Shown here piece after piece: positions 1,096 through 62,499 of a stretch of DNA of 64,000 nt (positions are counted from its first letter, which is position 1; each line of letters starts with the position of its first letter). A program made the translations under genes and the position numbers. The notes under the pieces are model-generated. The model searched no databases, was not told the origin of the DNA, and saw only the letters and a list, made by a program, of their open reading frames with translations. Origin of the DNA: Caenorhabditis remanei (taxonomy: Eukaryota; Nematoda; Chromadorea; Rhabditida; Rhabditidae); assembly GCF_010183535.1 (NCBI RefSeq), contig NC_071331.1, forward strand, positions 2,480,001 through 2,544,000, in the 5' to 3' direction.

Positions 1096-1162
1096 TTCAA
1101 TCAAGCATAGATGAAATTAAACAATGCATTTCTCATTGCTGGATTACAAGTACTTGAAACCG
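1096..1162 (-). ncRNA. candidate 21U-RNA locus, core 1155-1162
   Basis: Variant core CGGTTTCA on the minus strand. The YRNT start base is at 1116, 39 nt past the core, giving a 21-mer at 1096-1116. The same unit recurs at 7226-7290 in a duplicated block. Confidence 0.6.
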
Positions 1163-1331
1163 AAATATTCTAACGGCTATACTGTATCTTGAGGCCGATT
1201 GATAAGCTTAGAAACAGATTGATAATCTTCTTAGAACCATGTATACTTAATTTTTTTGATTCAGTTACAACTAGAAAATATACGGTGGTTAAATGAAAAC
1301 AAAAATACACTTAAAATTGAACAGGGAATTG

Positions 1332-1983
1332 CATACTTGTCAAATCACGGGCCAGCCCGGGCCGGGCCGCTGAAAATTTCAGGGCCCGAGCCGGCCCGCA
1401 GAGCCCGCAGCAAAAAATTATTTAAAAAAAATAGAATTGAAAGTCTTGGAAATTAAATTTTTTCTTCGTTTTATACTGAATCGAGGACGGGGGATTCGAT
1501 AAGACTACTTTCAGAAGCCTCCAGCAAGTTCTTGATCCTGATTCTGATCATCGGCTGATCATCACAGAGACTTTGAGAGGCTCAAAGTTTATAGTGACAA
1601 AATAAGGCGAGGGATGAAGAAGACCCAAATGGGCCCTATGGGATCTAAAAATGGTACCATCTTGTTTGTAAGGGTCGAATTACTAAAATATCTGAAAATT
1701 TAAAAAAAAATCTTCGGCTGATCAGTCACTGTCAAGATGAGCCGAATTTTAATTTTCAGACATTTTAGTAATTCGACCCTCGCAAACAAGATGGTACTTA
1801 TTCTGACAATTTCCGTTTTCACTTGTTGTCTTTTTATAATTTCTAATCAATAATATGTTTGCCATAAAGTAGTAAACGAAAAAACAATGGGAAAACGACG
1901 AAATATTTTTTTCAATATTTTGACGGGCCGAACGGGCCGGGCCGGAGGATTTTTTTTTGCGGGCCCGGCCCGTGACAAGTATG
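1332..1983. mobile_element. complete hAT-type MITE, 652 bp, GGGCCGGGCC family
   Basis: Termini are CATACTTGTCA at the left and TGACAAGTATG at the right, with GC-rich GGGCCGGGCC blocks just inside both ends. A perfect 8-bp duplication GGGAATTG flanks it at 1324-1331 and 1984-1991, the hallmark of hAT insertion. It carries no transposase. A second palindrome (1654-1797) is nested within. It sits inside a piRNA unit, between the core at 1990 and its original start near 1292. Confidence 0.88.
1654..1797. repeat. nested palindrome inside the 1332-1983 element
   Basis: Arms of about 50 bp, GTACCATCTTGTTTGTAAGG at the left and its near complement ending GCAAACAAGATGGTAC at the right, around a 45-bp centre. 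The arms differ at a few bases. It could be a separate small element that inserted into the MITE. Confidence 0.65.
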
Positions 1984-1989
1984 GGGAAT

Positions 1990-1997
1990 TGAAACAG
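1990..1997 (-). promoter_or_regulatory. Ruby-type core separated from its start by a MITE
   Basis: Exact core CTGTTTCA on the minus strand that overlaps the right target-site duplication of the hAT MITE. No YRNT lies at the usual distance within the element. Bridging the element puts a YRNT start at 1292, 38 nt from the core. Confidence 0.6.
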
Positions 1998-2332
1998 AAC
2001 AAAAGAAGTTTTTAATATAAAACATGAAGACGAGTTGAAACATTGTATGTACGCAAGAGCCGAAAGATTTCTGATGTCTGAAGAATTGCACAATTTGCTC
2101 ATCTCGTAGCAAAAATCACATCCGCCAGAGCTACGAATGCCTTTTTGCAAAAATTGGGAAAAATGATGACTACTGTTCCAGAAAGTTAACATTTCTTACT
2201 ACAAATCACATTGTCCATTGATATTGTACAATAAATCCCCAAAACATTGCATTAGAACTACTGTGACCCAACAATAGAATATGTCGAAATTGTTTCGACT
2301 ACATTTCAAAAATATTTCAAAACTACTAAAAG

Positions 2333-2590
2333 CATACTTGCAACGGGCCGGGCTGGGCCGTGACGAGAATTTCCACGGCCCGGCCCGAAGGCCCGGCTGA
2401 AAAATTTGAACTGAAATTTTGAACGAAAATTTGGATTTTTTTATATTTTTTCCCAAAAATGTCGAATTTTTGACTATACTTCAGAATTCAATCAAAAGAT
2501 AGTTATGCATCAAAAAATTGAAATTTTTAATGCAAAATTTCAAAAAAATTCAAAAAATTTGGTAAAAAACAGGTAAATTATTCATATGCC
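2333..2590. mobile_element. hAT-type MITE fragment (GGGCCGGGCC family)
   Basis: Begins CATACTTGCAACGGGCC with further GGCCCGGCCCG blocks to about 2398, then an AT-rich interior. The interior is an inverted match of 14790-14950 (AAAAATGTCGAATTTTTGACTA against its complement). The far terminus is not recognisable. Confidence 0.6.
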
Positions 2591-3582
2591 TGAAGTTTTT
2601 TGAAATTTCAAAAACAGGAAGTTTCCATTCACTATCTTACTGATAACACTCAATACCAACATTCAATTTACAGTTCCAAACAATTATGTTATTGAAACTC
2701 AATTTCAATAAAATAATCAAAGTAAAAACACTTTTGGAGTAGTAAGATCACGATGCTTTGAATTATTGGAATTTTTATTTATTAGTTTTCAAAAACTTGT
2801 AGAAACTGGTAAGTGTTTCAAGAATATATTATCAAAAACAAGTCATTGATGCCTGGCATAAAAGAACATCAGACACGGTATTGAAAACCCTTTGTCATTA
2901 CATCAATCCTTTAAAGTCATCGAATATGTTGCATGTAAAACAGTGATTATTATTTTGTTATTTCTAGCTGAAAAATAGGCAAAAATAGGTTTATTATTTG
3001 TAAAATAACTGGTTATATTGCATATCTATACTAAAGTAACAGGCAACCTATGATGCAGTTCTCCTGTATCAAAAACATAAATTGAATGTTATCGATGAAG
3101 AAATACGGAAATCGAAAATGTATTATTCAATTTAAACATAAAATGACTTCAATTTTTATAAATTGTTCAAAGCAGAGCAGTAGTAGAGAAAAAAGTACTG
3201 AATCTTATTCTGAAACACTATGACGTTTCGAAAAAATATATTATGTGAAAAAAATGCCTTCGGCATCAAAATATTTTCTAGATTAAACATTTCGAAACCT
3301 AATTTGCCTGGAGTGTTGACAGAAAAAACGGCATACTGCGATTTACCATGATCTGTACACGAAAGACTGAGAAACTTAAAAGTATTCACTATATTTTTAT
3401 TGATAACCAAAAATCTTTTTTTTTCAAACAAGACATTTAGAAGTGTTTTCACACTTCTAGAAGACTTCCGTTTGTCTATTAGTCTGCCTGTCTATCCAGA
3501 TTCTCCTGAGCTTAGAATTACTACTGTTTCTCAATAATCATGTAGTTAGCCAAGTATTTCAAACAACACTCCAGTGGTTATA

Positions 3583-3652
3583 TGTACCTCAAATGAAACA
3601 AAAATATTCGCTTAAACCTGAACTCTCCAAAAATGAAATGACATTGAAACAG
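3583..3652 (-). ncRNA. candidate 21U-RNA locus, core 3645-3652 (weak start)
   Basis: Exact core CTGTTTCA on the minus strand. The base aligned with the start of its duplicate at 9691 has lost the YRNT signal (ATTC instead of ATTG on the plus strand at 3606). The nearest remaining YRNT starts at 3603, 42 nt away. This copy may be silent or shifted. Confidence 0.4.
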
Positions 3653-4479
3653 TGAACTTCGATTATTCTGTCGATCTGACTATCTTTATGTCTGGATCAG
3701 AGTTGCATGGAATTCCGACTTCCGATTTTTCAATGAGATTTTTTTGTTGTTTATGAAGAAAAAAATTATACGAAAATTTAAGTTACACACGTCTCAGGAT
3801 CGGATGATTGATATTTTCCATGATGGGCGGTTCCAACTGTTTAGGCGTGCGTAGGTTCAGTAGTTCCGTATAAAACTGTAAAAATAGATTTTTAAATGAA
3901 ATGTTAATGGTTGGAACACTAGATTTTTGCTATATCTTGAAAAATCTTACTTGTTTCCGAATACAACATTTTCGAAACATTGAGTTTTGTGCAAAGTATT
4001 GTTGGCGTGTCGACGTTCTTAAAATCCACTGATTTCTTTGTTGCTTAACGGTTTTTTAATGAATTCGACTTGAAAAAGTGAATTCTGTTTACCTTTTTCT
4101 TCCTTCTAGCTTATATGAATCCTCCATTTATTGAGATCAGGCCTTCAGAACGGTAACCATAAATATGTCTGAAACATGAAAATGTTTTGTGAGAAACAAT
4201 TGTCAGGTTTTGTGTCCGAATAACCAGACATCATTCTTAGATGCCGACGTGAAGATTATATGGCATTCGAACTTTCTATTTGGATGGGTTTTGTTACAGT
4301 GATTTTTTTTGGTTTTTCACGACAGAACGCTTTCTTTCTGTCTGTCTCTATGTCTGGATGTCTGACAGTCTATTTTACTACGTTACATATAGGATGAGCT
4401 ACGAACTACCGCACAACAAAAGTGTTCATACATAGATCCTGTTTGATATAGTGGTTTCTTTTTCACGTATCTTCTTTGC

Positions 4480-4695
4480 CATTGTCACAGGCCAATTTCT
4501 GCCCTGTCTCTTCTCTCTTTTCTTCGGGTTCTCTCTCGACTGAGATGACGTATTGCTCTCGGCTCAGCGGGGCGTAAACAACCACCCGGCCGGACGAGAG
4601 TCCCTTTTCGCCTCTTTACTTTTGATTTTTTACTACACTGGTGCGGGAGAAGGACGGCAAGTCCTTCTCCTTGCTATACCGGGAAATAAATGATT
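4480..4695. other. GC-richer island absent from the duplicate copies
   Basis: It stands out in base composition and has no counterpart at the matching place in the copies near 10640 or 61340, so it is probably an insertion. It contains a perfect hairpin at 4646-4670 (GGAGAAGGAC, loop GGCAA, GTCCTTCTCC). An AATAAA follows near 4686. A solo LTR is possible, but no target duplication was found. Confidence 0.4.
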
Positions 4696-5680
4696 GCAAT
4701 CATAAACTAAATGTGTACCTAAAACAGACAGAAATGTTAAAATACAGAGCAGGCGCAATCTGGTATTTTACACCATCATCGTATTGCATCTCGCAGGTTT
4801 TTAAATAAAGCCTTACTGAAACGGAACATTGAGTAAATCAGGGTCTGTGGATTTCCAAATGAGCTTTATTCAAATAATGAAGATTTCAAACAAAACAGTT
4901 TCAGAAGAAATGAGTGTGGGATTTCTAAACTCTGAAACAAGGAATCTACTATTTTCGAAAAAAACAGACCACTGTTTGGTTATCTGCTTGGTTGCCCAAT
5001 TATAGTTATCACTCCGCGTTTTTTCATACAGTTCTGCACGTTTATTGAAAACACCTGAACTGTGTCTGAATAAAGCATTGCCAAAACAATAACTAGTAAG
5101 TTTTGGTTTTTAAATATTTATTAAAGGCGTGCCCAACCGAATGTCCAATTGCTCCACATTCAGAACTATTCTCGAATATAGCACTTCTGGAAATAGAAGA
5201 CTACGATAAGGTGAGATATGGAGTACCGATTCTCCTGGTGCAGGCTAGTTTCTTCAATATTTATAGAGCGACGATTTTGCAGTTTTTACATCAATTCCTT
5301 GAAAAAACGGTTTCTACATAAGATCTTTAGAAAAGAGTATATTTTGAAGATGTTTTGTCCGTCTACTGATTTCCAAATGTCCATAATCCCTCATTAATAT
5401 TTTTTTGCAAACGTGTATGAAATCTGAATCTTCTATATAATAGCACAAAAATTTAGGAACTCGGATAGAAAATATTTCAAAGAAACCCAATACACAATTA
5501 AATACAGAAAAATAGCTTATTGATACATAAAGCATCTCGGAAACAAGGATTATCGGTTTAAGTCTCTGTGTGTCCGGTCCCGCCCCGGATTATGAATTTT
5601 CTTAAAGTTTTGAACATGGACGATCTGCCAGAATTTTGAATAGTTTGACGATGAAACACTTAAGCTCAAACATTTTCAAG

Positions 5681-7225
5681 ACAAGTGGAAACAGTACTGT
5701 CCATAAAAGGTCAGTCAAGTTTCTTTGAATGTGTTTCAATAAACAATATATAGCTCACTGTTTTGCTCACTGTTTTATAACTAGGGTACATTTTTGGTTT
5801 CGCTATTTAATCTTTTTTTTTCATCCTATCTTTCTTCCATAATTGTCACCTGATATTTCATTTCTAGATTGGAATCTGTACAAGTGCCAGGTAACACAAA
5901 CCACAGAAAATTCCTGCTAAAGTGTTGTTTCTGAAACATGCAAAAAAAGTTAGGTGACGAAAATGTGAATGGATTAATTTATGACACCCAGAAAAATCGT
6001 ATCCCCCGCTTCAAAAAACCGTCCAGACATTGTTGAAATAGTTTGAGTCACTAAATTGTCGTTCGTTTTTTCGTCATCGAATTTTCAAAACTTGTTGTTG
6101 TTAGTGCTAATCAGTACTATTTCAAGTCTTTATTAATAGCGGTAAATTAAAATTCTACTCAATTGTTCAGCATTAAAAATTTTTTAAAATTCTTCTTCCC
6201 ATCCACACAGATGCGCAAGTGAAAAAGGAACGACGGACCAGCTAGTAAGAATTTGAAAGAAGGGGGAAAATGGGGGCTTTTGAAATAAAATATGGAGATG
6301 GAAAAGCTTTTAAATGATGGCTGGAAAATGGCAACATTTGTCCATTCAAATTGTGGAATATATTTAGGGAACCAGAAACAGGAGTAATAACGGAAAAAAA
6401 TGTTTCAAATTGTATTGAAATGAGAAAAAAATTTGCCACAGTAGTAAACGCGGTGTTGATGGTTTTACTAAAAACTCTCTGGAAAAAAAAAACTGAATGT
6501 AGGCAATGCCAAATACTCGGCAAATGTCGCAAAATCTAGACCAAAATACAAATGTTTCAAAAAAATTTCTTATTATTTTCAATTTCTATTGGAAACTATT
6601 AAACCTGTTATAATTGGTATTGCTGAACCTGTTGTTATCCGTTTGCAAATTGGGTCTGGTGCAACCAGACTATTTGGGGTTAGGCATGTTGAAGGGGTAA
6701 TTTGATCGAATGGCAATCTTATAGTTAGTTGAAACGGGTAAAAAACCTTCTTGAATATTTTCAACCGCGAGACCCATCCGAACAAATTCCATGTGCCTCT
6801 AACACCGCCGGCAAGTGTTCGGGATCCAATGATGTGGTACTCACAATCAGAATGAAATTAGCAGTTTTCAGAGAAATTAATTTAATGCTCCGATGATGCA
6901 ATCAATCAAGCTATTTTTTCGTAACCATCAGAATCAGTGTGAAATAGAAAATCCTGTTTCCAGTTAGCCTGATGATTTGACGACATTTGGTGGTGACAGT
7001 AACTCTGTTCACATATGTTGTCTACAATCATTGAGGTTATCACTAAGAACACAGTTTCAATATTTTTGTTAACATTTCTCGAAATAAAATATTGTTTATA
7101 TAATTGCCCGCTCAACACAATAACAACACTGAATCCGAAAATGTTTAACATTATTGATTCTTGATTAAGAGTTTTGTTGCAGTATACATGTTCTCCAGGA
7201 AATTTTTAATACCACATCACTTTTT
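5681..7225. other. noncoding stretch with decayed array units
   Basis: No gene recognised. Near 6745-6815 the minus strand carries GCACATGGAATTTGTTCGGA, matched on the plus strand near 59975, and related to 36150-36195 and 43815-43860. A plus-strand core-like CTGTTTCC lies near 6948. Confidence 0.4.
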
Positions 7226-7290
7226 CGTTGTAATTTCCAACTAAAATTGCAATATATTTCTCATTGGTGGAATACAAGTTCTTGAAACCG
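7226..7290 (-). ncRNA. candidate 21U-RNA locus, core 7283-7290
   Basis: Variant core CGGTTTCA on the minus strand. YRNT start at 7246, spacing 37 nt. It is a duplicate of the 1096-1162 unit with a different 21-mer. Confidence 0.5.
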
Positions 7291-7353
7291 AAATGTTTTA
7301 GCTGCTATACTGCGTCTTGAGACCGATTGATAAGTTTTGAAATTTAAAATTAT

Positions 7354-7414
7354 CGGGCCGGGCCGGGCCGAGATTTTTCCTGATTTTGGCCCGGCCCGAC
7401 CCGTGACAAGTATG
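7354..7414. mobile_element. hAT-type MITE remnant (GGGCCGGGCC family)
   Basis: About 60 bp with CGGGCCGGGCCGGGCC at the left and GGCCCGGCCCGACCCGTGAC ending in AAGTATG at the right. Only the right terminus matches the family ends; the left end is cut. Confidence 0.6.
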
Positions 7415-7620
7415 CTAATTTTGTGTCTGAAATTGTTTCTCGCATTTACCACGTTCCTTTGTTCTATTACAAAATGAAATGTCCACTGTTCCATGATCTT
7501 CATATTAAACTTCTGGCAAACATAAATTCATTATCAAAATTGTTCTTGTTTCACTTGTTCTAGAAATTATCTAAGATAAACCGAAGCAACATCGCGATTT
7601 CTGGAATTTCACCGCTAAAC

Positions 7621-7688
7621 CATTTTGATCAAAATGTTCCAATAATCTATGATACTTTTTTTTTCTGAATATTGCATGTTTGAAACAG
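7621..7688 (-). ncRNA. candidate 21U-RNA locus, core 7681-7688
   Basis: Exact core CTGTTTCA on the minus strand. YRNT start at 7641, spacing 40 nt, 21-mer at 7621-7641. An A/T run fills the spacer. Confidence 0.65.
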
Positions 7689-8115
7689 TGGTTTTCAAAA
7701 TTTCTCCGTGTGTATAAATTTCCGAAAATCCAGCTACCCGAAATATGAATTACTTCATTTCGACAAATTCTTTCCAAATCTATTTTTTTCGAAATGCGTA
7801 ATTTGTGTTTCTGTTTATCGATATTTTTGTGTCCGGATGTTCATTTATTATCGTTTTTTTTTGTTTTTGACAGGACTAACGAAATTGAGTAGTATTCATT
7901 TCTGAATACAAGATATGGAAATTGAAAAAATTTTTTTAGTGTTAGTTATTTGAACATCTGATTTACCATATGTTCGCTGGAATATTGGTTGTTCAGAGAT
8001 TCACGGAAGTTTTTCGTCTTTTGTGTGGCTGTGCTCTTCTGCCCAGCCCTTATGTCTTCCACCTTCCGTGTTTTTGAAAATTGACTTCTGTGCAGCTCTG
8101 TTCATATTGGACAAT

Positions 8116-8182
8116 TGAAAATTTTGAAAACGGCTATCACTTAGTACTAGAACTGGTTCTGGATAAAACATTGCTGAAACCG
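8116..8182 (-). ncRNA. candidate 21U-RNA locus, core 8175-8182
   Basis: Variant core CGGTTTCA on the minus strand. YRNT start at 8136, spacing 39 nt. A degenerate TCTG tract lies just upstream in the piRNA sense. Confidence 0.6.
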
Positions 8183-8519
8183 TGACTGTCTTTGAGTCTT
8201 TGTGTGTCCATTCGACCGGATTCTTCCATGTTATCTTCTTTCGTAATCTACCAATCACAGCAACACTGTCTGAATACTGAATGGTCCCCCGATGTCACAG
8301 TTTTGAAACATAACTTTTCAGGTACAAATATATGTCTGTCTGTGTGCCCGATTGTCCGCAGTGTTTATGAAACAAGAAAGATGTCACGAAACAGATGTGC
8401 TAAACTTTGTTTCCGAATAGTTTTGATCCGTCAATGTCTTTCGATACTTGGATAAAGTTCTGTCTTGTGTAATAATGCCTATTATCTATTGATCAAATTC
8501 TAGGAACTTCTTATTTTGT

Positions 8520-8587
8520 AAACTTCCGTCTGGGTGCACATTGTTGAAATTAAAGAAGGTTGACAAATAAACCAGTTTCTGAAACAG
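8520..8587 (-). ncRNA. candidate 21U-RNA locus, core 8580-8587
   Basis: Exact core CTGTTTCA on the minus strand. YRNT start at 8540, spacing 40 nt, 21-mer at 8520-8540. Confidence 0.65.
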
Positions 8588-9600
8588 AGGAAGTTAGAGT
8601 TACAAATCAGAGTTCGATCAACCTTCAATATCAAAATATTTTCCAAATAAAACATTTTGAAATCGAATTTGTGTTTGGTGTCCAGGACTGTTGACAGAGA
8701 AAACGGCATTGTGTTGATTGTTTTTGTAATTATCAAACGGAATCGTAACTCTAGTATTTTGCAAATTGACTGTAAAAACTGTATTAAAGGGGCATGTGTT
8801 TTTATATTTCAAACTCCTTCTCAAAGTGCGCCTCTTATAACACATTTTTACGGTATACCGAACACTGAAAATTCAATCATTATTTGTCGACCGAAGCTTC
8901 TCATGACTGTTTGAAACTGGACTCCTTCTGTATAAGGCCTATTTAAAACAGTAAGTATTGATATTTTACAAATGGTTGAGCCATGACGCTCATTGTCAGC
9001 TCATGGAGAGGTACCTGAAGATTAAATGAATCCTAAAGCAGTGGAGTTTATTGTCTGCGCTTCTGGATGTTCGAGTGGTATGAGCATAAGCGTAGCACCG
9101 CAAAAATGAAGTAAGATTATGGAACATCTGAATTGTTCTCTGTTAAAGTAAACATGAAAAGTGTATTTCAATTTTTCCGGTAATGAGTTTTTCTGTCGTG
9201 TCACTCTGTTTTTCTGTATTAAAATTCGGTAATCACTCTAATAGACCGTCACCCCAACAGTGCAAATATCTCCATTCTTATTTATCTTATTATAGAATGG
9301 GATAATTACCTAGTAATGTTCTATGCCTCAATTGAAACGTTTTTTTAAACGGAAACTTGGATAGTTTGGAACTCTAACCATAATCGTAGTGAGTTTAGAT
9401 TCTTCGAGATGAGACCGATCTGTAACGGAAATTATTGATGTTTTAATGGCAATCTTTCAGCTTTTATGGCACCGACACTGATGTTGTAAAATGAAATTAT
9501 TTTTTCATACAAGACACCTGAGAATGTTTTCACTCTTCTAAAAAAACCCATTCGTCTATTAATCTGCGTGTCTCTCTACATTTTTCTGAGCTGAGAATTA

Positions 9601-9667
9601 CTGTTTCAGAATATGCATGAAATAAACCAGGTATTTCAAATAACAGTCCTGTGGTTATACCGAGTAG
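9601..9667 (+). ncRNA. candidate 21U-RNA locus, core 9601-9608
   Basis: Exact core CTGTTTCA on the plus strand. YRNT start at 9647, spacing 39 nt. The duplicate near 3527 reads CTGTTTCT, so one copy of this pair has a damaged core. Confidence 0.65.
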
Positions 9668-9670
9668 AAA

Positions 9671-9737
9671 TCCAAAATTGACTCAAAAACATTGACTTAA
9701 ACCGGAACTGTCCCACAATGAAATGACATTGAAACAG
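9671..9737 (-). ncRNA. candidate 21U-RNA locus, core 9730-9737
   Basis: Exact core CTGTTTCA on the minus strand. YRNT start at 9691, spacing 39 nt. Its 21-mer ends four bases from the plus-strand 21-mer at 9647-9667, so the two units converge tail to tail. Confidence 0.65.
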
Positions 9738-10642
9738 TGAACTTCGATTATTCTGTCTATCTGTCTATTTTTATGTCCGGGTGTCTATGGCTATGATCGA
9801 ATTAACAGAAAAAAACAACTCGTTTCACTTTAAGAAATTCAAAAAACATAAATTTTATGAAAATTCTTCAATGCGAATTTTTGTTGTTTAATAAGGAAAT
9901 TAGACGAAAATGTAAGTTACACACGTTTTAGGATCGGGTTACTGCTATTTCCTATAATGGTCAGTTCCATTTTTAGGCGTGCGTAGGTTCTTTAGTTCAG
10001 TACAAAACTGTAAAAACAAATTGCTTTGCCTTTGCTTCATTCGAGGTACTAGATTTTTGTTTTATCAATTCTTGGATGGAATAATTCTGGAGCAATAATT
10101 TTTCTATCCAGGTTTGGATACGTTGTCAGTTCATATTTTCAACAAAAAAATTGAATTTTTGTCTCTCTGTATGTTTGTGCGCCATGTATACAGTGAAATC
10201 AAATCGTAAAAAATCTTACTTGTATCCGAATATCACATTTTCGAAATAGTGAGTTTTTTCATAGAAATGCTGGTTTATCGTGATTTTAAGTCTTTACTTC
10301 TACTTTTTTTAATGGCAACCAATGATCAGTTTCTGAATGAACTCTACTTGAAAAAGTGAACTTTGGTTACTTTTTTATTTTTTGGACGACAATACTTTCA
10401 TTGACATAAGGATATCAGAACGATAACATGAAACATGAACATGTTTTGTGAGACAATTGTCAGTTCGTGTGTCCGAATAACCTAATATCATACTTAGATG
10501 CCCTTTTTGAGATTATATGCTCAAGATTATCGAATTGTTCCAGATTAATCTTTTCCAAAGGGGTTTGTTACAGTAAAATTCATTTGTCTTTTTCACGACA
10601 AAACGATTTTTCTGTCTGCCTGTTTCTGTTCGGATGTCCACT

Positions 10643-10708
10643 AGTCCAATTTGAAACTTGAAATCAACGATAAAACTCATATTTCAAAATGAAGCCTTTC
10701 TGAAACCG
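10643..10708 (-). ncRNA. candidate 21U-RNA locus, core 10701-10708
   Basis: Variant core CGGTTTCA on the minus strand. YRNT start at 10663, spacing 38 nt. The related copy at 4817 has core TGAAACGG on the plus strand. Confidence 0.55.
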
Positions 10709-14764: not shown

Positions 14765-14768
14765 AATT

Positions 14769-52335: not shown

Positions 52336-53040
52336 AATATGTTTTACATGGAATGTATTTTGACTGCACCCCCCCCCCTAAAGTACCGATTTTTTTGCTC
52401 ATTCGATGCGTTTTCCCAAAACAAAATCACCCATAAAGGGTTTTCCTGTGACGTGACCTCGTTTTTGAGAAATTGAGATTTTTTGAAAAATGAAATGTTT
52501 TTAAAAAGTAAAAATAATTTTTTTTTCGAGGACGTCAGAGGTGACATGCTTGTAGTAAAAAGCTACAACTCATCTGGATCATTTTCCTATATAGCAGTAT
52601 AGCTGCTCCCGATCGAAAAGTAAATAATAAATTGCTCTGAAATTTTTTATTTTTCAAAAATATGTGAAATGTCGGAAATTAGTTCGAATTTCTGACATTG
52701 AATAAGTTTCAAGTAAAATCTTTTTGGAATAATAGTTTTCGGAGTGTATTCCACTATTTTCAAGTAAAAAAGAACATCCCTGTTGACTTCTCTTGTCATA
52801 ACACTCGTTCAAAAATTGCAAGTTTTCTCTTGTGATAGAAGTTCAACTGTCCATAACTCTTCTAAAACGGTAGCAAACAGACTTAAAAACATAGGATACA
52901 TTAGAAGTAGTCACTTCTCTTCAAAAATCATTTTTAGCTGTTTTTAGAAAAAAAAATTTTCGACTTTAGATAACATGATTCCAGAAAGTGAAGCCAAAAC
53001 AGTACACTTTTTGACAACCCTTTTATTCTTCAATTCTTAA
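52336..53040. other. no gene seen
   Basis: AT-rich with a C10 run near 52370. No cores or elements recognised. Confidence 0.35.
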
Positions 53041-53046
53041 ATAAAT

Positions 53047-53113
53047 TTGGAGCATGGCTTTTGTCTAATGTCAAGCAACATAGCTACTTCTGAATAAGGA
53101 CTCTTGGAAACCG
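53047..53113 (-). ncRNA. candidate 21U-RNA locus, degenerate core 53106-53113
   Basis: Multicopy family. The core has drifted to CGGTTTCC on the minus strand; YRNT start at 53067 keeps the 39-nt spacing. Confidence 0.45.
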
Positions 53114-53119
53114 GGAGTT

Positions 53120-54005
53120 CTGTGTCTGTGCTTACGGTTGTCCAGATGATCAATGCGGTTTTTGACAAATTTTCCCTGTTTTACCGAGTTCCTAACAGTA
53201 ACCTTGTTTTTTCACCAATGTTTGAAAGTTTGAAAGACACTGCCATTTTTCAATCGCATCTATTTGGTAAATGTTTCGTATTCAGACAATCTTAGAAATT
53301 GATTTGTAACTGAAATATATTTGAAAACATTCAGACACGCTGACCAAAACACTGGCAAATTTAAAGGTGATTAGGAAGTCGCTTAACATGAAAAGATGTA
53401 AGAATTTAAAAGGGGCCTCTATGTCAAACAAAGGATGTATATTGTTCAGTAAGAGTTCAATTTCCTAATTGATGTCCAAGAAACAGGTCATTAATTTTCC
53501 AGTTTTCTGTTAATCTTCTATGTTTGTGTAGTTTTCTTTCCGGATATTCGGAAGTAAATCAGCATACGTTGCTATCCGATAATGAAAAATTTTTTCCTAT
53601 GTGTCACCTATACCGAACTAGCGTCCCCCGCCTTCCGGTGGGCTCCGCTCGTTCTGGTAGTGCAGAGGTCCCACGCATTTTTGCCTCAATCCACACAATG
53701 TACTCACCGATTTCAAACAATAAAATTAACCCAAAAAAGTTAGAAATAAAAGTCCATATCTTTGCAAAATGCAGTCTATGTATGTATATAAATCCGCTCA
53801 AAACCCACTGTTTCACGTTTTTGTGAATCTCATTGACTTTAACATTCAGAAATACATGTAGTTTTAAATGGAAAAACCACAAAACAGCTGTCTTAAAAGT
53901 TGTATTAATGTGCTACAATATGTTTCAACCAGCCTGTCTCCCCCGCCTTCGGCGGTTGAGCCGGCTGGCCTCTCTTCATTCACGTGGTCATTGACTTTCG
54001 AAAGT
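53120..54005. other. no gene; two GC-rich hairpins
   Basis: CCCCCGCCTTCCGGTGGG near 53625 and CCCCCGCCTTCGGCGGTTG near 53940 are similar and self-complementary. Each starts a 60-70 bp GC-rich patch in AT-rich DNA. Origin unclear; possibly two relics of one repeat. Confidence 0.4.
53808..53815 (+). promoter_or_regulatory. Ruby-type core without a well-spaced start
   Basis: Exact core CTGTTTCA on the plus strand, but no YRNT with its T at 38-44 nt. Possibly fortuitous or decayed. Confidence 0.3.
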
Positions 54006-54090
54006 GCCCGCATGGCCGAGTGGTCTAAAGCGGCGGTCGTTGTCCAAAGCACGCCTGTTCGGTTTTGCCCGCTGGCTCAGTTTCTCTTCT
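54006..54090 (+). pseudogene. tRNA-like relic (Leu/Ser type)
   Basis: GCCCGCATGGCCGAGTGGTC looks like the 5' part of a class II tRNA with a perfect A box TGGCCGAGTGG. The expected B box reads TGTTCGGTTTT, heavily changed, and the anticodon and acceptor stems do not close. Not expected to be functional. Confidence 0.45.
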
Positions 54091-54199
54091 CTTTCCAAAA
54101 CCGCTGCGGACATCGCCTCAGACAGACAGACAAACACCACTTGTCTTTTATATATAAGAATGATAATTGGATAAAGATGATTCTTTTGTAATATTGATC

Positions 54200-55110
54200 A
54201 ATAACAATTCAAAATTGTTAGCGAATAAAACAGTTCTGCATCAATGCAAGTTGGAGTTAAATACAATACTAAAATGTATCGTAGTTATATGAACACATCA
54301 TTCGGTATCGAAATGATTTCCAAATAAAACATTTTTTAAACCAAACTTGTTTGGTCTGATTCAGCGTATCTTGTGCTTCAGGGACAAAAACAATATTGTG
54401 TGATCCACTATGATCTGTACAAGAAAAACCTAAGGAACAGGAGATTCACTAATTAGTACTCCCTTTGTTTTTGTTAATAACCAGTACCGTCTGTAATTTG
54501 GGCTATCTAAATAAAACTCCGCAGATCGTCGTATAATTAATGTGATTTGTTGATAAAAAAGTTCCGAAACAGCATCATTCGGCTGCATAGTAAGAAATCA
54601 TAAAGTTTTTGATGTATCTCCTTTTTTTGTTAGCAGAGGTGTCTGAACTATTTACATCATAACAAGATTACTTTCAGATGAGTGTTGTGTAACAGATTTT
54701 TATCACTTTTCTATGTGTATGACTTCGGTCTGCCTGTTTGTCTGAATATCTGGATTGTCTTTACCGAAGTGGACATATACGTTTCTCGGTTAGCATAAAG
54801 CCAACCAGAACGATCAAACATTAGTCGCAGTATTCTGAATAGATGTTAATTTATTATGAACCCATTAAATGTTTTAATGTTTGGGGTTATATATATTGCA
54901 TTGTGTGTTCCTTAACAGTAATAAATTCTACTTGAAATAGCAACTTCTGTGATAATCGAATCAAAAACTAAGGTACCAGAAGGGAAATAATATTTCTAAA
55001 ACAGAAAACTGTTTTATGAGATACAATTACCAGCCAGGGTATTCCTCCTTAAGCAGTCTGGCAACAAAAGTGTTCCTACAGAAGTCTTCTTCAAAACAGT
55101 GAAATTTAAT
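54200..55110. other. decayed array sequence, no gene
   Basis: Contains CGAAACAG near 54564 and TCTGCCTGTTTGTCTG near 54730 as remnants of piRNA units. Confidence 0.35.
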
Positions 55111-55177
55111 TTTGTCGAAACTCCAAGCACATTGTGTTGCTACTCCCAAATTTTTAAATGAAGCTTTTCTGAAACCG
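55111..55177 (-). ncRNA. candidate 21U-RNA locus, core 55170-55177
   Basis: Variant core CGGTTTCA on the minus strand. YRNT start at 55131, spacing 39 nt. Related to the 10643-10708 unit. Confidence 0.62.
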
Positions 55178-55365
55178 AACATTGAGTTATTCAATAAATG
55201 TCCAAGTGAATCATTCAAATAAAGAATTGGCACCAAATAATTTCGTATAATCACCAACATAATCGTTTTTGGATGAATCCTTTTTGAAGCATTACATTGA
55301 ATTATTCAGTGCCTGAGAGATGCTGACATTCAATTCAACATATTTGTTTATAAAAAAAGTTTATC

Positions 55366-55373
55366 TGAAACAG
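55366..55373 (-). promoter_or_regulatory. Ruby-type core without a well-spaced start
   Basis: Exact core CTGTTTCA on the minus strand. No YRNT at 36-42 nt. Related to the equally startless core at 10782. Confidence 0.33.
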
Positions 55374-55739
55374 GGAAACTACACAAAAACTAACTTTATT
55401 AGGTTTTAATCCTTACCATTTTCGGAAATATTGAAAAACAAACAAACTGGGCCTGAATATAACATTTCCGAAACACTAAGTTTCAGTGTATAGCATTTTA
55501 TAGAGGCATGCTTGTCCGGATGTCCAACTGCTTTAATTTCAGAACTGTTGAAGAATAACTCATTTCCAGAAGTGAAGAGCTGTAGATTTTCCGGTTCGTT
55601 CAAGACTTCCCAGCGGTATTTCACATGAACAGTGAATGCGATGCCATAAATTGAAAAAAGTCTCACGATTTCTAATGTTCTACTTTATCAGTCGTTTCTG
55701 CTGGTTTTAATTTTTGCAACAAAACCGTAATGTGTTCAT

Positions 55740-56142
55740 CAGAGCTGTGCGGAAGTAAAATTTCTGAAAGGGGAAGAAGGAAAAAGGAAGAAGGAAATTA
55801 CTTTTATAAAGAGAAGAAGGAAGAAGGAAGAAAAAAGTGGAAAAAGCCCGGAAGGAAGGAAGAAGGAAGGAAGAAGGAAGGAAGAAGGAAGTTGAGTTCC
55901 GAACCGGGAAATCGGAAGTTAATTTTGAAAATGACAAATTTGAGGAAACTTTTTTCTAGTCATCTCTGAAAACGAATTTTGATGTTGTTTCATACAAAAT
56001 TCCGTCAAAAACCACCAAAATTCCGCCAAAATTCCGTCGGAAATTACAAAATTTTAGTAAACTTTTCAACAAAATTTTAGTAAAACTTTGAAGAGGGAAG
56101 AAGGAAGAAGGAAGTCAAAGGAAGGAATTCCGCACAGCTCTG
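55740..56142. mobile_element. hAT-type MITE with GAAGGAA purine tract, 403 bp
   Basis: Ends CAGAGCTGTGCGGAA and TTCCGCACAGCTCTG; flanks GTGTTCAT (55732-55739) and GTGATCAT (56143-56150), an 8-bp duplication with one change. The interior at about 55768-55900 is nearly pure purine on the plus strand. A second GGAAGAAGGAAG tract lies near the right end. Confidence 0.85.
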
Positions 56143-56286
56143 GTGATCATTAAAAATTGTTTGAGATAAGAACGCTTTTTTAAAATCAAATTCATGGAAC
56201 AGTGATCTCTTTAAATTTTGAACGAAATGTCTGTTTGGGAGCAACTGCAGGGTTCATAGTTTTCAATATATCAGATAGCTGTACTA

Positions 56287-57529
56287 TTAGGTTGGCAAGA
56301 AAGTTTTTGTGCATGTTTTGTTTTGAATGCTGTCAGATAAATTACAAGAATCAAAACCTACTCCGCATATCATTTGTTAGATGAACTCTCTGTGATTCTG
56401 ATAGCAGTCAGGAATTCCCCCGACGCTTCTCTTCTGCAATAGCCATGCCTATCTTTATTCTTGACCGACAACTCTTACAGCAATATTTTTATTTCCGCTT
56501 TCCATCTAATACCAAAATTTCTAAATTTGTGCAACCAACAGGAAAAGTTTACAAGGATGAATTCTTCTTTTGGCACACTATAAGTGATTAAGTTTACAAC
56601 TTTGAGAAATGCGATTTTTCTGTGGTCGAAGTACCACGTACTAAAAGTGCATATGAATAGGATTTGTACATGCTGTGAGCTGTAGAAGGAGAGTTTCCAT
56701 CTCAATCTTCCTGTGAATTATCAATGATAATCATTACTACTTATAACACAATCGGAAACTTTTTGAAATGTGTCGGCAAGAATAAAAAAAGAGAGTCATA
56801 TTAAAAAGAGTCATATTTTGGCCAAGATCCGCGTTCAGTGCAGGGTAGACCTGCGGCTTCGAATTCTCTCTCCTCTTTCAAACTTCAATCGACCTAACCA
56901 TTTGGGTATCACTGATAGAGAGTGGGTATTGCACACAAACTACCCCAGGGAAACCCACCGACTTGGCGTTGATCAAACGCTGGTTGACATCATCAAAAGG
57001 GAATCATACCCAAAGAAAATAATGACCCTAATGTGGAGGACCCAACACAACGTATATGATTGGAAAATGTAAAACAATAATCTTCTACTTCTGTTCTTTT
57101 TGTGTGCAAAAAAACAAAACTATACGTGAGTCTTCAGCTCCACACGGTCAAAAAGTCTGCCATCTACATAATGTTGCATATCCGCTAGTTGCATACCCGA
57201 CAAAATATTTTCTCGCCTATTATTGGAAAATAGTTTTTAATCATGCAAATTAGAGCTCGGATCTTCTTCTAACGAATTACTATAAGTTCGGGGTAATTCA
57301 GCGCTCTGCCGCTGAACAGGACTACGATACTTGAAGTCAAGTCGAAAAATGGGTGGAAGTCTATTTTGCCTCGAAACAACCGGAGCTCTGCCAGGACGGT
57401 ATCGGGAACATACCCAGTAAATTGGAGACAGTTGTGGACTAAGATGATTACTATGTTTGGTATTTGGTATGCTTCCTGTTTGAGTAAAAATAACTTGAGT
57501 CATGCACAAAAACTTTCTTGTCAACCTAA
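56287..57529 (+). mobile_element. mariner element, decayed, both ends present
   Basis: Terminal repeats TTAGGTTGGCAAGAAAGTTT and (complement) TTAGGTTGACAAGAAAGTTT match at 28 of 29 bases; TA dinucleotides flank both ends (56285-56286, 57530-57531). The 1243-bp length fits a full-size mariner. Confidence 0.93.
56770..57470 (+). pseudogene. mariner transposase, frameshifted remnant
   Basis: One frame carries ITDREWVLHTNYPRETHRL followed by SYPKKIMTLMWRTQHNVYDW, which match the mariner stretch around the second catalytic Asp (here at codon 56914-56916). The third catalytic motif region, near 57130-57150, retains only an APH-like trace and its Asp is not visible. A different frame at about 57340-57442 reads VEKWVEVYFASKQPELCQDG and on to KLETVVD, the mariner C terminus. 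Stops and frame changes separate these pieces, and the N-terminal DNA-binding part is not readable. Inactive. Confidence 0.8.
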
Positions 57530-57531
57530 TA

Positions 57532-58160
57532 GATGTGACTGTAAAGTATCAGAAATATTTGGTGTATGTATGATAGCATCAAACAAACTACAGTATTTCC
57601 AAAACGCTAAAATCATTATAAGACGAACAAGAAGCAGTTCATTTTTGGAAGCATACATATCAAACATCGCATAAAACGCAATTTCTGAAACATTTTTGAA
57701 ATAGAGTTTTTTTGAATTTCTAATTTTCCAATCTACGTTCTGCAATCTGTACAAATTATCAATCAAACAAATTGAATTGAATAGACAGTTGATAAAAATG
57801 TAAATAAACCGAAATGTTTTTTCTTTTCGATATTCAGACAACTTGAATATTTGTTCATTTTTCATTTTTCAGTGATTCGATGCCCTATAGCATACTGTCA
57901 AAGTTTAAACTCTTGTTTGATACACCACAAAGTTATACCGAAAAGAGTGTATTTTAAATTATCCATATAAGACGGTTGAAATTTCAAAAGTTCAGATAAT
58001 TGAAGAAAAATTTTAAAAATTCATGCATTTTTGGACCATTCCATTAATACTGTTTTCTTTTCTTTCTCGTGTTTATGCCGCTAGAAAACAGAATATAAAG
58101 CAGATTTATTCCAAATCCAACAACTTCCTTTTTATCTTAACAAACCACATATTTAAGTGA
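57532..58160. other. no gene seen
   Basis: AT-rich stretch between the mariner and the large palindrome, without cores or recognised repeats. Confidence 0.35.
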
Positions 58161-59182
58161 AAAAGATGGAGCAGATTTATTAAAATATAAAAATTGGACA
58201 GAAAACATAAATATGGACGGGGCAGATTTTCCAAGTTACAAATTCTGGACCAACATTGAAGATCTGAAAAAAAGAAAAATTTTCACGTGAAGTTTATTTT
58301 GGAGCAGATTTTTCAATTTGAAAAATTTGGACAGAACTAATAAAATGTTGTTATTTTTGCCGTGAGTTCCAACTCATTCGTTTTTCGTGGTTTTAGGGCA
58401 GAAATTGAAAAGTGAAAATTCTGGATCGGGCGGTATGTTAAGAAGGTGAAAAAATGAGAATTCTGAAATTTAAAATATCTCATTCAACACCAAGCTGCAA
58501 ATATTATTAATTTTTCGTAAAACGAGGAAAAATAAAATTCTGAATACGCTGAAACCAACCTAAACAATTGAAACCGAATAAATATAACAGAATTTTTCTA
58601 CATTTGTTACGTTTGAGTATTGTTCGGTTTCAAATCATCAACACTGCCGATGCGAAGTGAGCAAATTTGGAACCAAAAAGAAAAACTAACGAAATTTCGA
58701 AGTTCCACGGGTGCGAAAATTTTGTTTTTGACACGAAGCGCTCTAATTGGTAATTTTCGGAAAATTTTGTTGGTAGTGTTTAGGTTGGTTTCAGCGTATT
58801 CAGAATTTTATTTTTCCTCGTTTTACGAAAAATTAATAATATTTGCAGCTTGGTGGTGAATGAGATATTTTAAATTTCAGAATTCTCATTTTTTCACCTT
58901 CTTAACATACCGCCCGATCCAGAATTTTCACTTTTCAATTTCTGCCCTAAAACCACGAAAAACGAATGAGTTGGAACTCACGGCAAAAATAACAACATTT
59001 TATTAGTTCTGTCCAAATTTTTCAAATTGAAAAATCTGCTCCAAAATAAACTTCACGTGAAAATTTTTCTTTTTTTCAGATCTTCAATGTTGGTCCAGAA
59101 TTTGTAACTTGGAAAATCTGCCCCGTCCATATTTATGTTTTCTGTCCAATTTTTATATTTTAATAAATCTGCTCCATCTTTT
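58161..59182. repeat. near-perfect inverted repeat, two 406-bp arms
   Basis: Arms 58161-58566 and 58777-59182, complementary without indels (paired positions sum to 117343 at both ends) and without mismatch in the parts compared. The 210-bp spacer holds a smaller pair, TTGAAACCGAATAA and TTGTTCGGTTTCAA. Within each arm a loose unit recurs about every 75-100 bp: GGAGCAGATTT ... AAAATTTGGACAGAA. A further diverged unit lies just outside at 59215-59260. No coding content. Confidence 0.9.
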
Positions 59183-59733
59183 GTTAGTCTGACTCCATTT
59201 ATTATCATGATTCTTGAAAAGTTGGCATAAATCTGCTCTAATTTGGAAATTGTAGCAGTAATTAATGATTTTTTACGAATCAAGTAGATTTTCTGAATTT
59301 TCCAATTCCAGAACCATAATTTAAACCTATTTTGAAAATTTAAAAGTATCACTGCTTAAAAAAACAGATTTTTCTTAATTTCACACTTTCAAGTAGTAAA
59401 ATCGAAACTTTTGAAATATCAAGCGTCTTATATTCTATCTTGTTAACTAGTTGCCCTCACTTTTCTAAATAACTTCCGTCTGTCTGTCATTCTGTCCGTT
59501 TCTCCAGATTATCAATCCGTCGGAGTTTTCAGTCTCAACGTTTTTGAAAATGGCAACCCTTGATTGCTAGCTGTATAACAGTTTTTAAATAAGTTCTACT
59601 TGAAAAGAAAATTTTGAGTACTGTGAGCTACATGTCTGACACACAGTTTATTTGTTTTCTTATTTTTAGTATTCAAGTTCTGCTGCCAGTCCACCCAGAA
59701 ATCTCTGAAAATTGCGTGCACGTGTCTCAATAT
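59183..59733. other. no gene; decayed array sequence
   Basis: Contains a CTGTCTGTCATTCTGTCC tract near 59490, and from about 59670 the start of a copy of 51880-52014. Confidence 0.35.
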
Positions 59734-59800
59734 GATCCATGTTGATGGTGAGTATTGTCAATCACAAAACTGATGCCTTGATGAAAGACTTTTGAAACCG
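59734..59800 (-). ncRNA. candidate 21U-RNA locus, core 59793-59800
   Basis: Variant core CGGTTTCA on the minus strand. YRNT start at 59754 (39 nt). Duplicate of 51948-52014 with a slightly different 21-mer. Confidence 0.62.
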
Positions 59801-60591
59801 AACATTCTAAAAATGGTTCAAGTATACCGTGTTGTTTATTCAAAAGTCTAGATTACGACAATTTTCTAGCGAAGACAATTTTTAAAATTTATTGACGGTT
59901 TTTAAAACTTATTCTTATTTTGTAAATCTGATATTGTAAATTCACAGTCTGCCGCCGTAGGGTGTTAATGGCGCATGGAATTTGTTCGGATGGGGCTCGT
60001 AGTTGAAAAGCATTCTGAAAACAGTAAACTCTGGAATTGTCAGTGAAAAATGCTTGCGGGGTCTGAAACTGGGACAAGATTTTTCGAACTCAAAGTTTGT
60101 TATGTATCGGCAAGTATGTTGGTGATGAACTGCAATAAAGAATATAGTTGTGTCAATTTGGCAGTGTCGGTACTGTTTGAGACAGTTTCCCAAGTATTGT
60201 GTGCTCGGATGTTTGAGTTCACTTCTGAGGACACTTGATACTATCATTGATCAAAATTATAGGCAAATCGGAGATGGTCAACTTTTTTCGTGTGCCTATG
60301 GTCAGTTGATCGATGCTCGATCGACTCTGAGAGTGCGTCTTAAAACAGTGAAACTTCTAAACTAAAACCGGTATCCGAGTATTCAGCGATTCAGCGTCTT
60401 GAATTTATATGGGCGTGTCCAAATGTCAAAAGATTCAATTTAAAAAATTCCAGAGCATAGTATGTCAGATTCGTGTGTTATCTAAAACTCTTAATAGCAT
60501 GTTTATTTCTCAATAAAATGTTTTTGAAACTGTAAAAAAACACCTTGCCTCCTTCAGTCTCGATCATAGCCGGGTTAAAAATGTTATTCCG

Positions 60592-60659
60592 TACAACTAT
60601 GTCAAGATGTTATTGTAAAAAAATCTTTACTGTCTCTTATTGAAACCCTTATGAAACAG
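60592..60659 (-). ncRNA. candidate 21U-RNA locus, core 60652-60659
   Basis: Exact core CTGTTTCA on the minus strand. YRNT start at 60612, spacing 40 nt. Confidence 0.65.
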
Positions 60660-60860
60660 ATTTAAAATATTGGAATAGCCTGGGTCATAAAAACTGTTCA
60701 GATAACACATTGACGAAACATTGAGTTTCTATGTTAGATGCCCACGTTTGAGACTTTCGAACTGTTTCAGATAAAACTTTTCCAATTTGGAAGAGTTTTG
60801 TTACAGTGAAATTCATTTGTCTTTTTCACGACAAACCTTTTTCTTTCTGTCTGTCTCTAT

Positions 60861-61230
60861 CAGGGCTGTGCGTAAAATTTTTCGGTCGAAACTTTTCGAA
60901 AATATTTCTCAGACGAAAAGTTTTCGGATTATTTTCGAAAACCCGTTCGAAAAATTTTGGAAATTTTTTCTGAAATTTTCAAAAAATAAGTAACAAAAAT
61001 AGTGATTTTTCGATTTTCCCTGAATCCAGTTTTCTAACAATTTCAAAATTTTTGCCTCCGAAAAACACATTTTTCAGAAAGTTTTCTGGAAACTTTTTAT
61101 TTGAATTTTTTTTGTTTTTTTTCGGTCAAAATTTTTCGAAAAACTAAAGTTTTTCGGTATTTTCCGTACCAAGCTTTCGAAAAAAAAGTTTTTTGAAAAA
61201 TTTTCAGAGCCGTTTTTTCGCACAGCCCTG
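60861..61230. mobile_element. hAT-type MITE, 370 bp (CAGGGCTGTGCG ends)
   Basis: Ends CAGGGCTGTGCG and CGCACAGCCCTG, perfect inverted repeats. A perfect 8-bp duplication GTCTCTAT flanks it at 60853-60860 and 61231-61238. The paralogous site near 4345 reads GTCTGTCTCTATGTCTGG without the element, giving an empty site. The interior has TTTTTCGGTCGAAACTTTTC-type repeats. Confidence 0.92.
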
Positions 61231-61271
61231 GTCTCTATGTTCGGATGTCCGCTAGCCTATTTTACTACTTG

Positions 61272-61339
61272 GGATATCAAAATACCTGCGAACTACCTGG
61301 CAATAAAAGTGTTCCTACATAAACCCCGGTTTGAAACCG
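61272..61339 (-). ncRNA. candidate 21U-RNA locus, core 61332-61339
   Basis: Variant core CGGTTTCA on the minus strand. YRNT start at 61292, spacing 40 nt. Confidence 0.6.
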
Positions 61340-61888
61340 TGGTTTTTTAGTATTGGTTCTCGAAAAATGTAAGAAAAGAGTATTGCACCTCACAGGTTTT
61401 TAAATGAAGCCTTTCCGAAACCGAACATTTCAGTTAGTGCATGTCAGTGCCTGTGAATCTCCAAGTGAAGCAGTAACTTTTGTTTAAAAAATTGTACCAG
61501 TGTTCGGATGTCCGGATGTTCAGTGATCCAACCCCACCACTCAGGGGTTTGCACTTGAGGAAAACGAAACAAGAATACAGCACAAATACGGTTTAAAAAA
61601 AGGAGTTGTAATTTGGTGCAATTGTGGAAAATAATGCTTCGAACTTCAAAAATTCAAAAAGCAATCTATAATGTATGTATTTTTCTGTATGTTTCTGTAT
61701 TCCATGTTAAAAACTATCAGAATTGTGACATTTTACTTTTCTGTTTGTTTGCATTATTGTCTCTGACATTACTAGCTGATTTAAAGATTTCTGATTAAAA
61801 CATATTGGAAACAGTAACTATATCTGCGAATCCGTAGAGATCCCTGTAAAAAATATTTTGATCATTGACATTATCACTTTGTTCCACA

Positions 61889-62222
61889 GTTGCCGGTGGC
61901 AAGGTACCCTCATAACCTTGTAGTCTCCGAGTCCTCACAATAAATACGCAACGACACTCCGCCAAAGGCTCACGCGCCTACCGTAACCTCAGCGCGTCAG
62001 TTCACGTGGACACGTGTACTCCACGTGGCAACAAGTAGTTTCTGGAGTCGGTTGGCTTTCAGAGTTAGTTCTAGTTTTAGCGTTGGTTGTTTAACCTTTG
62101 TTTTGTAAGTTACGCTCTCTTATTTTATTTTCTTGCAATAAACCTTATTTATTGTAAGAAACTGTGTATTTGGCGTCTTATTTTATCAGGACCCTATCAC
62201 CCCGTATTCGTACGCGGGCAAC
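61889..62222 (+). mobile_element. LTR-like insertion, 334 bp
   Basis: Termini GTTGCCGGTGGC and GCGGGCAAC form short inverted ends, with a perfect 6-bp repeat TCCACA outside (61883-61888, 62223-62228). Inside are GC-rich CACGTGGACACGTG, then AATAAACC at about 62138 about 85 bp before the end, as in an LTR. The ends are GT...AC rather than the usual TG...CA, so the class is uncertain. Confidence 0.6.
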
Positions 62223-62432
62223 TCCACAATATAAAATCCTTGAAATATGCTACCACATCTTTAATAACCAGTAATGCACGTCTGTGTATTCAAATATCCA
62301 GATATCCCTCTGTCAGGTTTTGAAATACTTTCAAAAGAGTAAAAACTAGAATTGTTTGGTAACTTGGTTCCTGACATTTAAAAACAACGAAAAACAGAGA
62401 ATGGCGGATTGTGTCTTTTCACCTGTTTTTTG

Positions 62433-62499
62433 GTTATTTCTTTTGCATCGACACTGTATGCCAATTGAATGGTTGCAAAAAGTCACATTCTTGAAACAG
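62433..62499 (-). ncRNA. candidate 21U-RNA locus, core 62492-62499
   Basis: Exact core CTGTTTCA on the minus strand. YRNT start at 62453, spacing 39 nt. Confidence 0.65.

What the first reader, a model, noticed from the sequence alone, without database searches (positions are those of the whole stretch)
1096..62499. Window is a dense type I piRNA cluster rather than gene-poor filler
About 41 exact CTGTTTCA cores on both strands, plus about 18 CGGTTTCA, in a window that otherwise holds one tRNA and transposon relics. By composition only a few exact cores are expected. Known: in C. elegans such cores define 21U-RNA genes. Whether these particular loci are described depends on the species.
Basis: partly seen in the sequence, partly recalled or inferred. 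Interest (0 to 1): 0.9.

Follow-up and report, generated by a model that had tools for sequence, protein, structure and literature searches.

The report
Nematode piRNA gene cluster diversifying guides
This stretch of a roundworm chromosome is packed with what look like tiny genes for small defence RNAs (piRNAs), and where those genes have been copied, the part that encodes the RNA guide has changed about twice as fast as the DNA around it, as if copying and then altering guides is how the worm gets new ones.

Summary
In detail: 42 CTGTTTCA and 23 CGGTTTCA against 4.25 and 2.35 in shuffles. Contig sizes identify Caenorhabditis remanei PX506, chromosome IV. The cores show type I piRNA anatomy: a YRNT start site peaks 45-47 nt downstream (58 of 65 window sites, control mean 32). 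The window is ordinary for its chromosome, and 21U-RNAs of C. remanei are already published.

The surprise is in local duplicates. Promoter and 5' U are kept, but the next ~20-22 nt, the piRNA body, diverge about twice as fast as neighbouring DNA (53 of 63 gene families have body below flank). The effect vanishes at shifted positions and grows with motif strength. I infer birth by local duplication followed by diversifying selection on the guide (0.6); transcription-linked mutation is not excluded. No paper listed by seven searches reports this, but listings were capped and key papers are not held. No small-RNA data were available, so expression is untested.

The parts
1..64000 (.). Piece of the chromosome IV type I piRNA domain; 170 predicted genes wholly inside (116 minus, 54 plus)
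   Evidence: list; 174 with a slightly wider start-site range, against 7.6 in shuffles; exact cores
33560..53241 (.). Region with most of the local segmental duplicates carrying piRNA genes; similarity continues into the 10 kb beyond the right edge (L015)
37701..37767 (-). Predicted piRNA gene, core CGGTTTCA 37760-37767, U at 37721; member used as query for the 15-copy family test
46363..46429 (-). Predicted piRNA gene of the same family, core 46422-46429, U at 46383
   Evidence: score 19.0
49193..49259 (-). Predicted piRNA gene of the same family, core 49252-49259, U at 49213
   Evidence: score 19.0
50276..50342 (-). Predicted piRNA gene of the same family, core 50335-50342, U at 50296
   Evidence: score 18.4
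27412..27477 (-). Best-scoring predicted piRNA gene in the window, core 27470-27477, U at 27432
   Evidence: score 19.4
11752..11819 (-). Predicted piRNA gene, core 11812-11819, U at 11772
   Evidence: score 19.0
9601..9667 (+). Predicted piRNA gene, core 9601-9608, U at 9647
   Evidence: score 17.9; has an aligned local copy
44406..44472 (+). Predicted piRNA gene, core 44406-44413, U at 44452; its local copy has its core at 36644
   Evidence: score 18.0

Best explanation
The window is part of the type I (motif-dependent) piRNA domain of Caenorhabditis remanei chromosome IV. Each predicted gene is a unit of about 70 bp: a Ruby-type core (CTGTTTCA or variants), a weaker T/A-rich block 14-19 nt after the core start, and a YRNT initiator whose T lies mostly 45-47 nt after the core start. 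By analogy with C. elegans (not tested here), each is transcribed alone by RNA polymerase II from 2 nt before the U and trimmed to a 21-nt 5'-U RNA loaded on PRG-1. Genes multiply by local segmental duplication. After duplication, promoter, initiator and U are held, while positions 2 to about 21-22 of the RNA diverge roughly twice as fast as nearby DNA. I infer that selection favours new guide sequences: constant promoter, variable guide. SHOWN: motif, spacing, chromosome blocks, local duplication, accelerated divergence of the body. INFERRED: that these loci make piRNAs (0.95), and that the acceleration reflects diversifying selection rather than locally raised mutation (0.6).
For: Core enrichment that no shuffle reaches. 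YRNT at T offset 44-51 in 58 of 65 window sites (control windows mean 32.0, max 42) and 170 of 200 chromosome IV sites (mean 99.2, max 130), mode at 46. Out-of-sample model: 174 against 7.6 in shuffles; 2 in 20 kb off the chromosome. Of 75 core-plus-CATTG places, 67 on C4, 2 on unplaced C137, 6 on the other chromosomes. Body divergence: identity .847 in deserts.870 in promoters.711 in bodies; with unambiguous U.90 at U.52-.73 over +1 to +20.81 at +23. Duplication families with body below flank: 12 of 12 in the 84-kb contig; 23 of 25 over all held chromosome IV loci (11 of 13 outside the contig), median Jukes-Cantor ratio 1.91. Gene families: 53 of 63, p 8e-10, best-fit low segment +1 to +22. 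A 15-copy family: 3.4 changes per body site against 1.76 upstream, 1.15 downstream, 0 at YRN and U. Ten shifted controls give -.030 to +.015 against -.138. Dose response: -.005 at score 0-2, -.12 to -.18 above 8. Ratio 1.4-4.1 in all six divergence classes.
Against: No small-RNA reads were available, so no locus is shown to be expressed. In gene families the low segment ends at +22 (bootstrap 5-95%: 21-28), bases +21 to +25 average .727 and -2,-1 average .747, all below the flank (.802); nascent precursors in C. elegans peak at 26 nt (PMC7917558, passages), so mutation over the transcribed stretch fits too. Seed plus supplementary positions do not diverge more than the rest of the body (difference -.017, p .56), as targeting-driven selection might predict. 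Pairs whose partner promoter looks dead (score <=2, 15 pairs) still show the drop (-.172), as do 35 pairs with a weak partner. Two of 25 duplication families and 10 of 63 gene families do not show body below flank. Motif sites without YRNT still show a smaller drop (-.060, 22 sites). The tree was built from non-body columns, which favours fewer steps there. 'Neutral' rests on neighbouring DNA, whose 20-nt windows are somewhat more variable than binomial (1.35 times), not on sites known to be free of constraint.
Confidence: 0.6

Rival explanations
1. The cluster is real, but the body diverges faster because transcription by a paused polymerase makes that short stretch more mutable; no selection on the guide is needed.
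For: The low-identity segment (+1 to +22, bootstrap end 21-28) overlaps the short transcript, whose nascent form in C. elegans starts 2 nt before the U and peaks at 26 nt. Gaps are also raised (.092 against .051). No seed preference. The effect grows with promoter strength, as transcription would also predict.
Against: Substitution types are nearly the same in body and flank (transitions .385 and .430 of changes), so no particular lesion stands out. With unambiguous U in the 84-kb contig identity is back to .81-.86 at +23 to +25. Pairs with a dead partner promoter show no weaker effect, which speaks against this rival as much as against selection.
Confidence: 0.27
2. The body evolves neutrally and the rest of the domain, deserts included, is held back by unknown constraint such as chromatin-related sequence composition.
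For: The neutral rate was not measured independently; deserts are neighbouring DNA, and their 20-nt windows vary 1.35 times more than binomial.
Against: Deserts (.847) and other non-promoter flank (.843) are equal, and shifted positions show no drop; a uniform constraint that spares only the 20 nt after each start site is unlikely.
Confidence: 0.08
3. The cores are not piRNA genes but a repeat family or a compositional effect.
For: 26 of 65 exact cores lie in local repeats, and one CGGTTTCA family is duplicated many times.
Against: 39 of 65 cores are not in detected repeats; start-site spacing holds in 170 of 200 sites; the chromosome distribution and the independent model fit type I piRNA genes.
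Confidence: 0.03

Closest known systems
Type I (Ruby-motif) 21U-RNA / piRNA gene clusters of C. elegans chromosome IV
   Same: 8-nt core CTGTTTCA, YRNT start, clustering on chromosome IV (PMC9683057 and PMC6436959, passages seen)
   Different: The C. remanei blocks (about 0.8-13, 18.4-20.5 and 22-24 Mb, the latter listing 100 of 145 places) are wider than the 4.75-7.5 and 13.5-17.5 Mb given for C. elegans in PMC9683057; expression not tested here
C. briggsae piRNA clusters (25,883 loci; clusters on chromosomes I and IV)
   Same: Ruby core, YR initiator, rapidly changing piRNA sequences (PMC9683057, passages)
   Different: That paper concludes that piRNA sequences are 'under little selective pressure' and asks how new piRNA genes arise; here bodies change faster than their flanks and copies arise by local duplication
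21U-RNAs of C. remanei by small-RNA sequencing (reference 113 of PMC6468775; from memory Shi et al. 2013; the id I tried was not held)
   Same: Same species; the review passage says C. remanei and C. [quoted passage not shown] elegans and C. briggsae
   Different: I could not open the primary paper, so whether these loci are listed there is unknown
Fast-evolving amniote pachytene piRNA loci (PMC9925758, start of abstract seen)
   Different: Those loci make long precursors (recalled); here each gene is a 21-nt unit with its own promoter

Membership tests
Caenorhabditis type I 21U-RNA genes | Ruby core CTGTTTCA or close variant, far above chance | tested here: met
   42 and 23 against 4.25 and 2.35 in shuffles
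Caenorhabditis type I 21U-RNA genes | YRNT start with its T at a fixed distance from the core | tested here: met
   Peak at 45-47 nt from the core start; 58 of 65 window sites, control mean 32.0
Caenorhabditis type I 21U-RNA genes | Megabase clusters on chromosome IV, both strands | tested here: met
   Contig length equals C. remanei IV; places; strands 116 minus and 54 plus
Caenorhabditis type I 21U-RNA genes | 21-nt 5'-U RNAs bound by PRG-1, 3' methylated | not testable with these tools
   No small-RNA data; only indirect support from the ~20-22-nt divergence footprint
Caenorhabditis type I 21U-RNA genes | Short capped precursors starting 2 nt upstream, PRDE-1 and SNPC-4 dependent | not testable with these tools
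   Described for C. elegans (PMC7917558; PMC6436959); not measured here
Sequence under diversifying selection | Divergence above the neutral rate | tested here: inconclusive
   Body about twice the neighbouring DNA, but the local mutation rate is unknown

The most novel reading that the evidence does not exclude
Nematode piRNA genes evolve like a receptor repertoire: a constant promoter-plus-initiator cassette is copied locally, and the guide of about 20 nt is then driven to differ by diversifying selection, at about twice the rate of neighbouring DNA. That would answer how new nematode piRNA genes arise and overturn the view that their sequences are under little selection.
Probability: 0.55. 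Interest if true: 0.82.

Novelty: new member of a known kind. Interest (0 to 1): 0.62.

Why it matters
A published study of C. briggsae asks outright how new piRNA genes arise in worms and concludes that piRNA sequences are under little selective pressure (PMC9683057, passages). The local duplicates here give a birth route and show that the guide is the fastest-changing part of the unit. If selection is the cause, the repertoire is actively diversified, which existing population data could test. If mutation is the cause, transcription of these tiny genes is mutagenic, which would also be worth knowing. Either way, the footprint locates piRNA bodies from DNA alone.

Tried and rejected
Rejected or set aside: one repeat family explaining the cores (26 of 65 cores under repeats). 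Seed-region selection (no difference within the body). Whole core words kept in duplicates: 26 of 69 against 168 of 599 for shuffled words, base identity .879 against .802, a weak test; positional profiles were used instead. The baseline 'outside any footprint' (.969) was dropped because it covers all alignments, apparently mostly near-identical multi-copy repeats; one search keeps only alignments that contain a gene. Ratio against age binned by noisy flank identity (3.0 falling to 1.3) is prone to regression to the mean; rebinned by the rest of the alignment it is 4.1, 1.4, 2.8, 2.3, 2.0, 1.8 from youngest to oldest, so I claim no early burst. Rows dropped before counts: alignments under 100 columns, those starting in a stretch around the satellite at 16.2-17.3 kb, alignments above 96% identity, families with fewer than 20 body columns (one of 13; number not printed), and genes with more than one possible start. 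The 15 copies were picked by eye from 23 for an alignable downstream flank. The first run of the duplicate test stopped on a script error and was repeated. In some searches the listed places beyond about 0.5 Mb of C1 are all on one strand; the listings are capped and were not used for density. No other nematode genome was at hand, so C. elegans or C. latens could not serve as a replicate.
Full report
IDENTITY. The window is G000:C4:2480001-2544000 of a 130,466,896-base assembly in 186 contigs. Contig lengths C1-C5 (17,247,545; 19,935,723; 17,877,849; 25,790,997; 22,502,457) equal chromosomes I-V of C. remanei PX506 in Table 1 of PMC10461856 (section 6 read). The window therefore lies on the left arm of chromosome IV, which that table ends at 8.64 Mb.

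OBSERVATION. CTGTTTCA 42 times, CGGTTTCA 23 times; shuffle means 4.25 and 2.35. Genome-wide: 19,000 CTGTTTCA against 6,781 reversed, 7,440 CGGTTTCA against 4,376 reversed. Twenty 10-kb samples of chromosome IV between 0 and 13 Mb give 110 CTGTTTCA (0-12 each) and 26 CGGTTTCA. The window is typical for CTGTTTCA and about 2.8 times richer in CGGTTTCA, partly through one local family.

MAP. Of 75 places of a core-plus-CATTG pattern, 67 lie on C4 (0.83-12.5, 18.4-20.3 and 23.2-24.0 Mb), 2 on unplaced C137 and 6 on C1, C2, C3, C5 and C6 together; reversed control 4. A plain 12-letter word gives 145 places, control 16; of the 100 listed, 34 are on C1-C3 (55 Mb) and 66 on C4 up to 22.3 Mb, 5 of these between 13 and 18.4 Mb. 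The other 45 places were not listed.

ANATOMY. YRNT peaks with its T 45-47 nt after the core start: at offset 46, 64 of 200 sites against about 15 at background offsets; within offsets 44-51, 170 of 200 (control mean 99.2, max 130), in the window 58 of 65 (mean 32.0, max 42). A position matrix trained on 18 chromosome IV loci, excluding the window and its two neighbours, gives 211 window sites above score 10, 174 with YRNT. Five first-order shuffles give means of 20.8 and 7.6; 20 kb of chromosomes I, II, III and V give 9 and 2; the 20 kb beside the window give 56 and 46. Of 170 genes wholly inside, common cores are CTGTTTCA 35, CTGTTTCT 17, CGGTTTCA 16, CTGTTTTA 13; 116 are on minus, 54 on plus; all 170 21-mers differ.

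OTHER CONTENT. One tRNA-Val, one hAT relic, nothing else in Pfam among 20 of 37 ORFs of 100 aa or more.

DUPLICATES. Self-comparison finds many local copies, mostly 75-96% identical, densest from about 33.5 to 53.2 kb and into the 10 kb beyond the right edge. One 271-base query has 19 places in the genome, all between 2.336 and 2.585 Mb of C4. New genes thus arise near old ones.

ACCELERATED BODY. First seen with exact cores: 69 directed occurrences, identity .668 over +47 to +66 from the core start against .76-.82 around. In 84 kb (window plus 10 kb each side), 73 of 215 predicted genes have an aligned copy, and 63 of the 73 have lower identity in the body (+1 to +20 after U) than in the flank. 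In the same kind of alignments desert identity is .847, promoter .870, body .711; of 13 duplication families, the 12 with at least 20 body columns all have body below flank. Over all held chromosome IV loci: 23 of 25 families, sign test 1e-5, median Jukes-Cantor ratio 1.91. With an unambiguous U: 106 genes in 63 gene families, 53 with body below flank, body .647, flank .802, p 8e-10; best-fit low segment +1 to +22, bootstrap start -2 to 2 and end 21 to 28. In one family, 15 copies picked from 23 matches, parsimony steps per site are 3.4 (body), 1.76 (upstream), 1.07 (core and motif), 1.10 (spacer), 1.15 (downstream), 0 (YRN and U); body against flanks p 2e-6, on a tree built from non-body columns, which favours fewer steps outside the body.

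CONTROLS. Shifting all genes by 120-400 nt either way gives differences of -.030 to +.015 against -.138 for 130 genes. Motif sites without YRNT: -.060, 22 sites. By motif score from 0-2 to above 14 the differences are -.005, -.049, -.007, -.081, -.119, -.184, -.117, -.137. Substitution types are similar in body and flank; gap fractions .092 and .051. Against a selection reading: no seed preference; pairs with a dead partner promoter show the same drop (-.172, 15 pairs); the 3' end of the signal does not exclude the whole short transcript. Ratio by age of duplicate: 1.4 to 4.1 without a clean trend.

LITERATURE. PMC9683057 (passages) reports C. briggsae clusters, fast-changing sequences, 'little selective pressure', and the open question of how new genes arise. 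PMC6436959 (passages and section 12) tests selection on the motif with SNPs; I saw no test of the body in what I read. PMC6468775 (passages) says C. remanei and C. [quoted passage not shown] elegans and C. briggsae. Seven searches listed, by title and start of abstract, no paper on faster divergence of piRNA bodies in duplicates; five of the seven matched more papers than were listed or had loose terms, and two papers I looked for by id (from memory Bagijn 2012 and Shi 2013) are not held. This is absence in what I saw only.

VERDICT. The cluster: real by sequence, of a known kind, ordinary for its chromosome. The divergence footprint: real in these data, not found in print in those searches. 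Its cause: diversifying selection most likely (0.6), transcription-linked mutation next (0.27).

Noticed in passing
window 16333-16621 and 16905-17123: Palindromic TTTCGAAA satellite arrays with periods of 11-82 bp; TTTCGAAA has the highest z-score of all 8-mers (128 counted on both strands, i.e. 64 palindromic sites).
   Followed up: no
window 58161-58579 and 58764-59182: Inverted repeat with 419-nt arms, 98% complementary, 184 nt apart, made of smaller internal repeats; looks like a recent foldback element.
   Followed up: partly
window, e.g. about 1930-1970: GC-only words such as CCGGCCCG occur 15-21 times over both strands against about 0.1 expected.
   Followed up: no
window, 5' U pairs 37721/37608, 46383/46272, 45532/45421, 41557/41447, all minus: Two predicted piRNA genes 110-113 bp apart travel together in one duplicated unit.
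   Followed up: partly
window 1-64000: Predicted piRNA genes are about 2 to 1 on the minus strand (116 against 54).
   Followed up: no
G000:C2:17530764-17593831: Eight places of the 12-letter core word within 63 kb on chromosome II, unlike the sparse rest of C1-C3; a minor off-IV cluster or a repeat.
   Followed up: no
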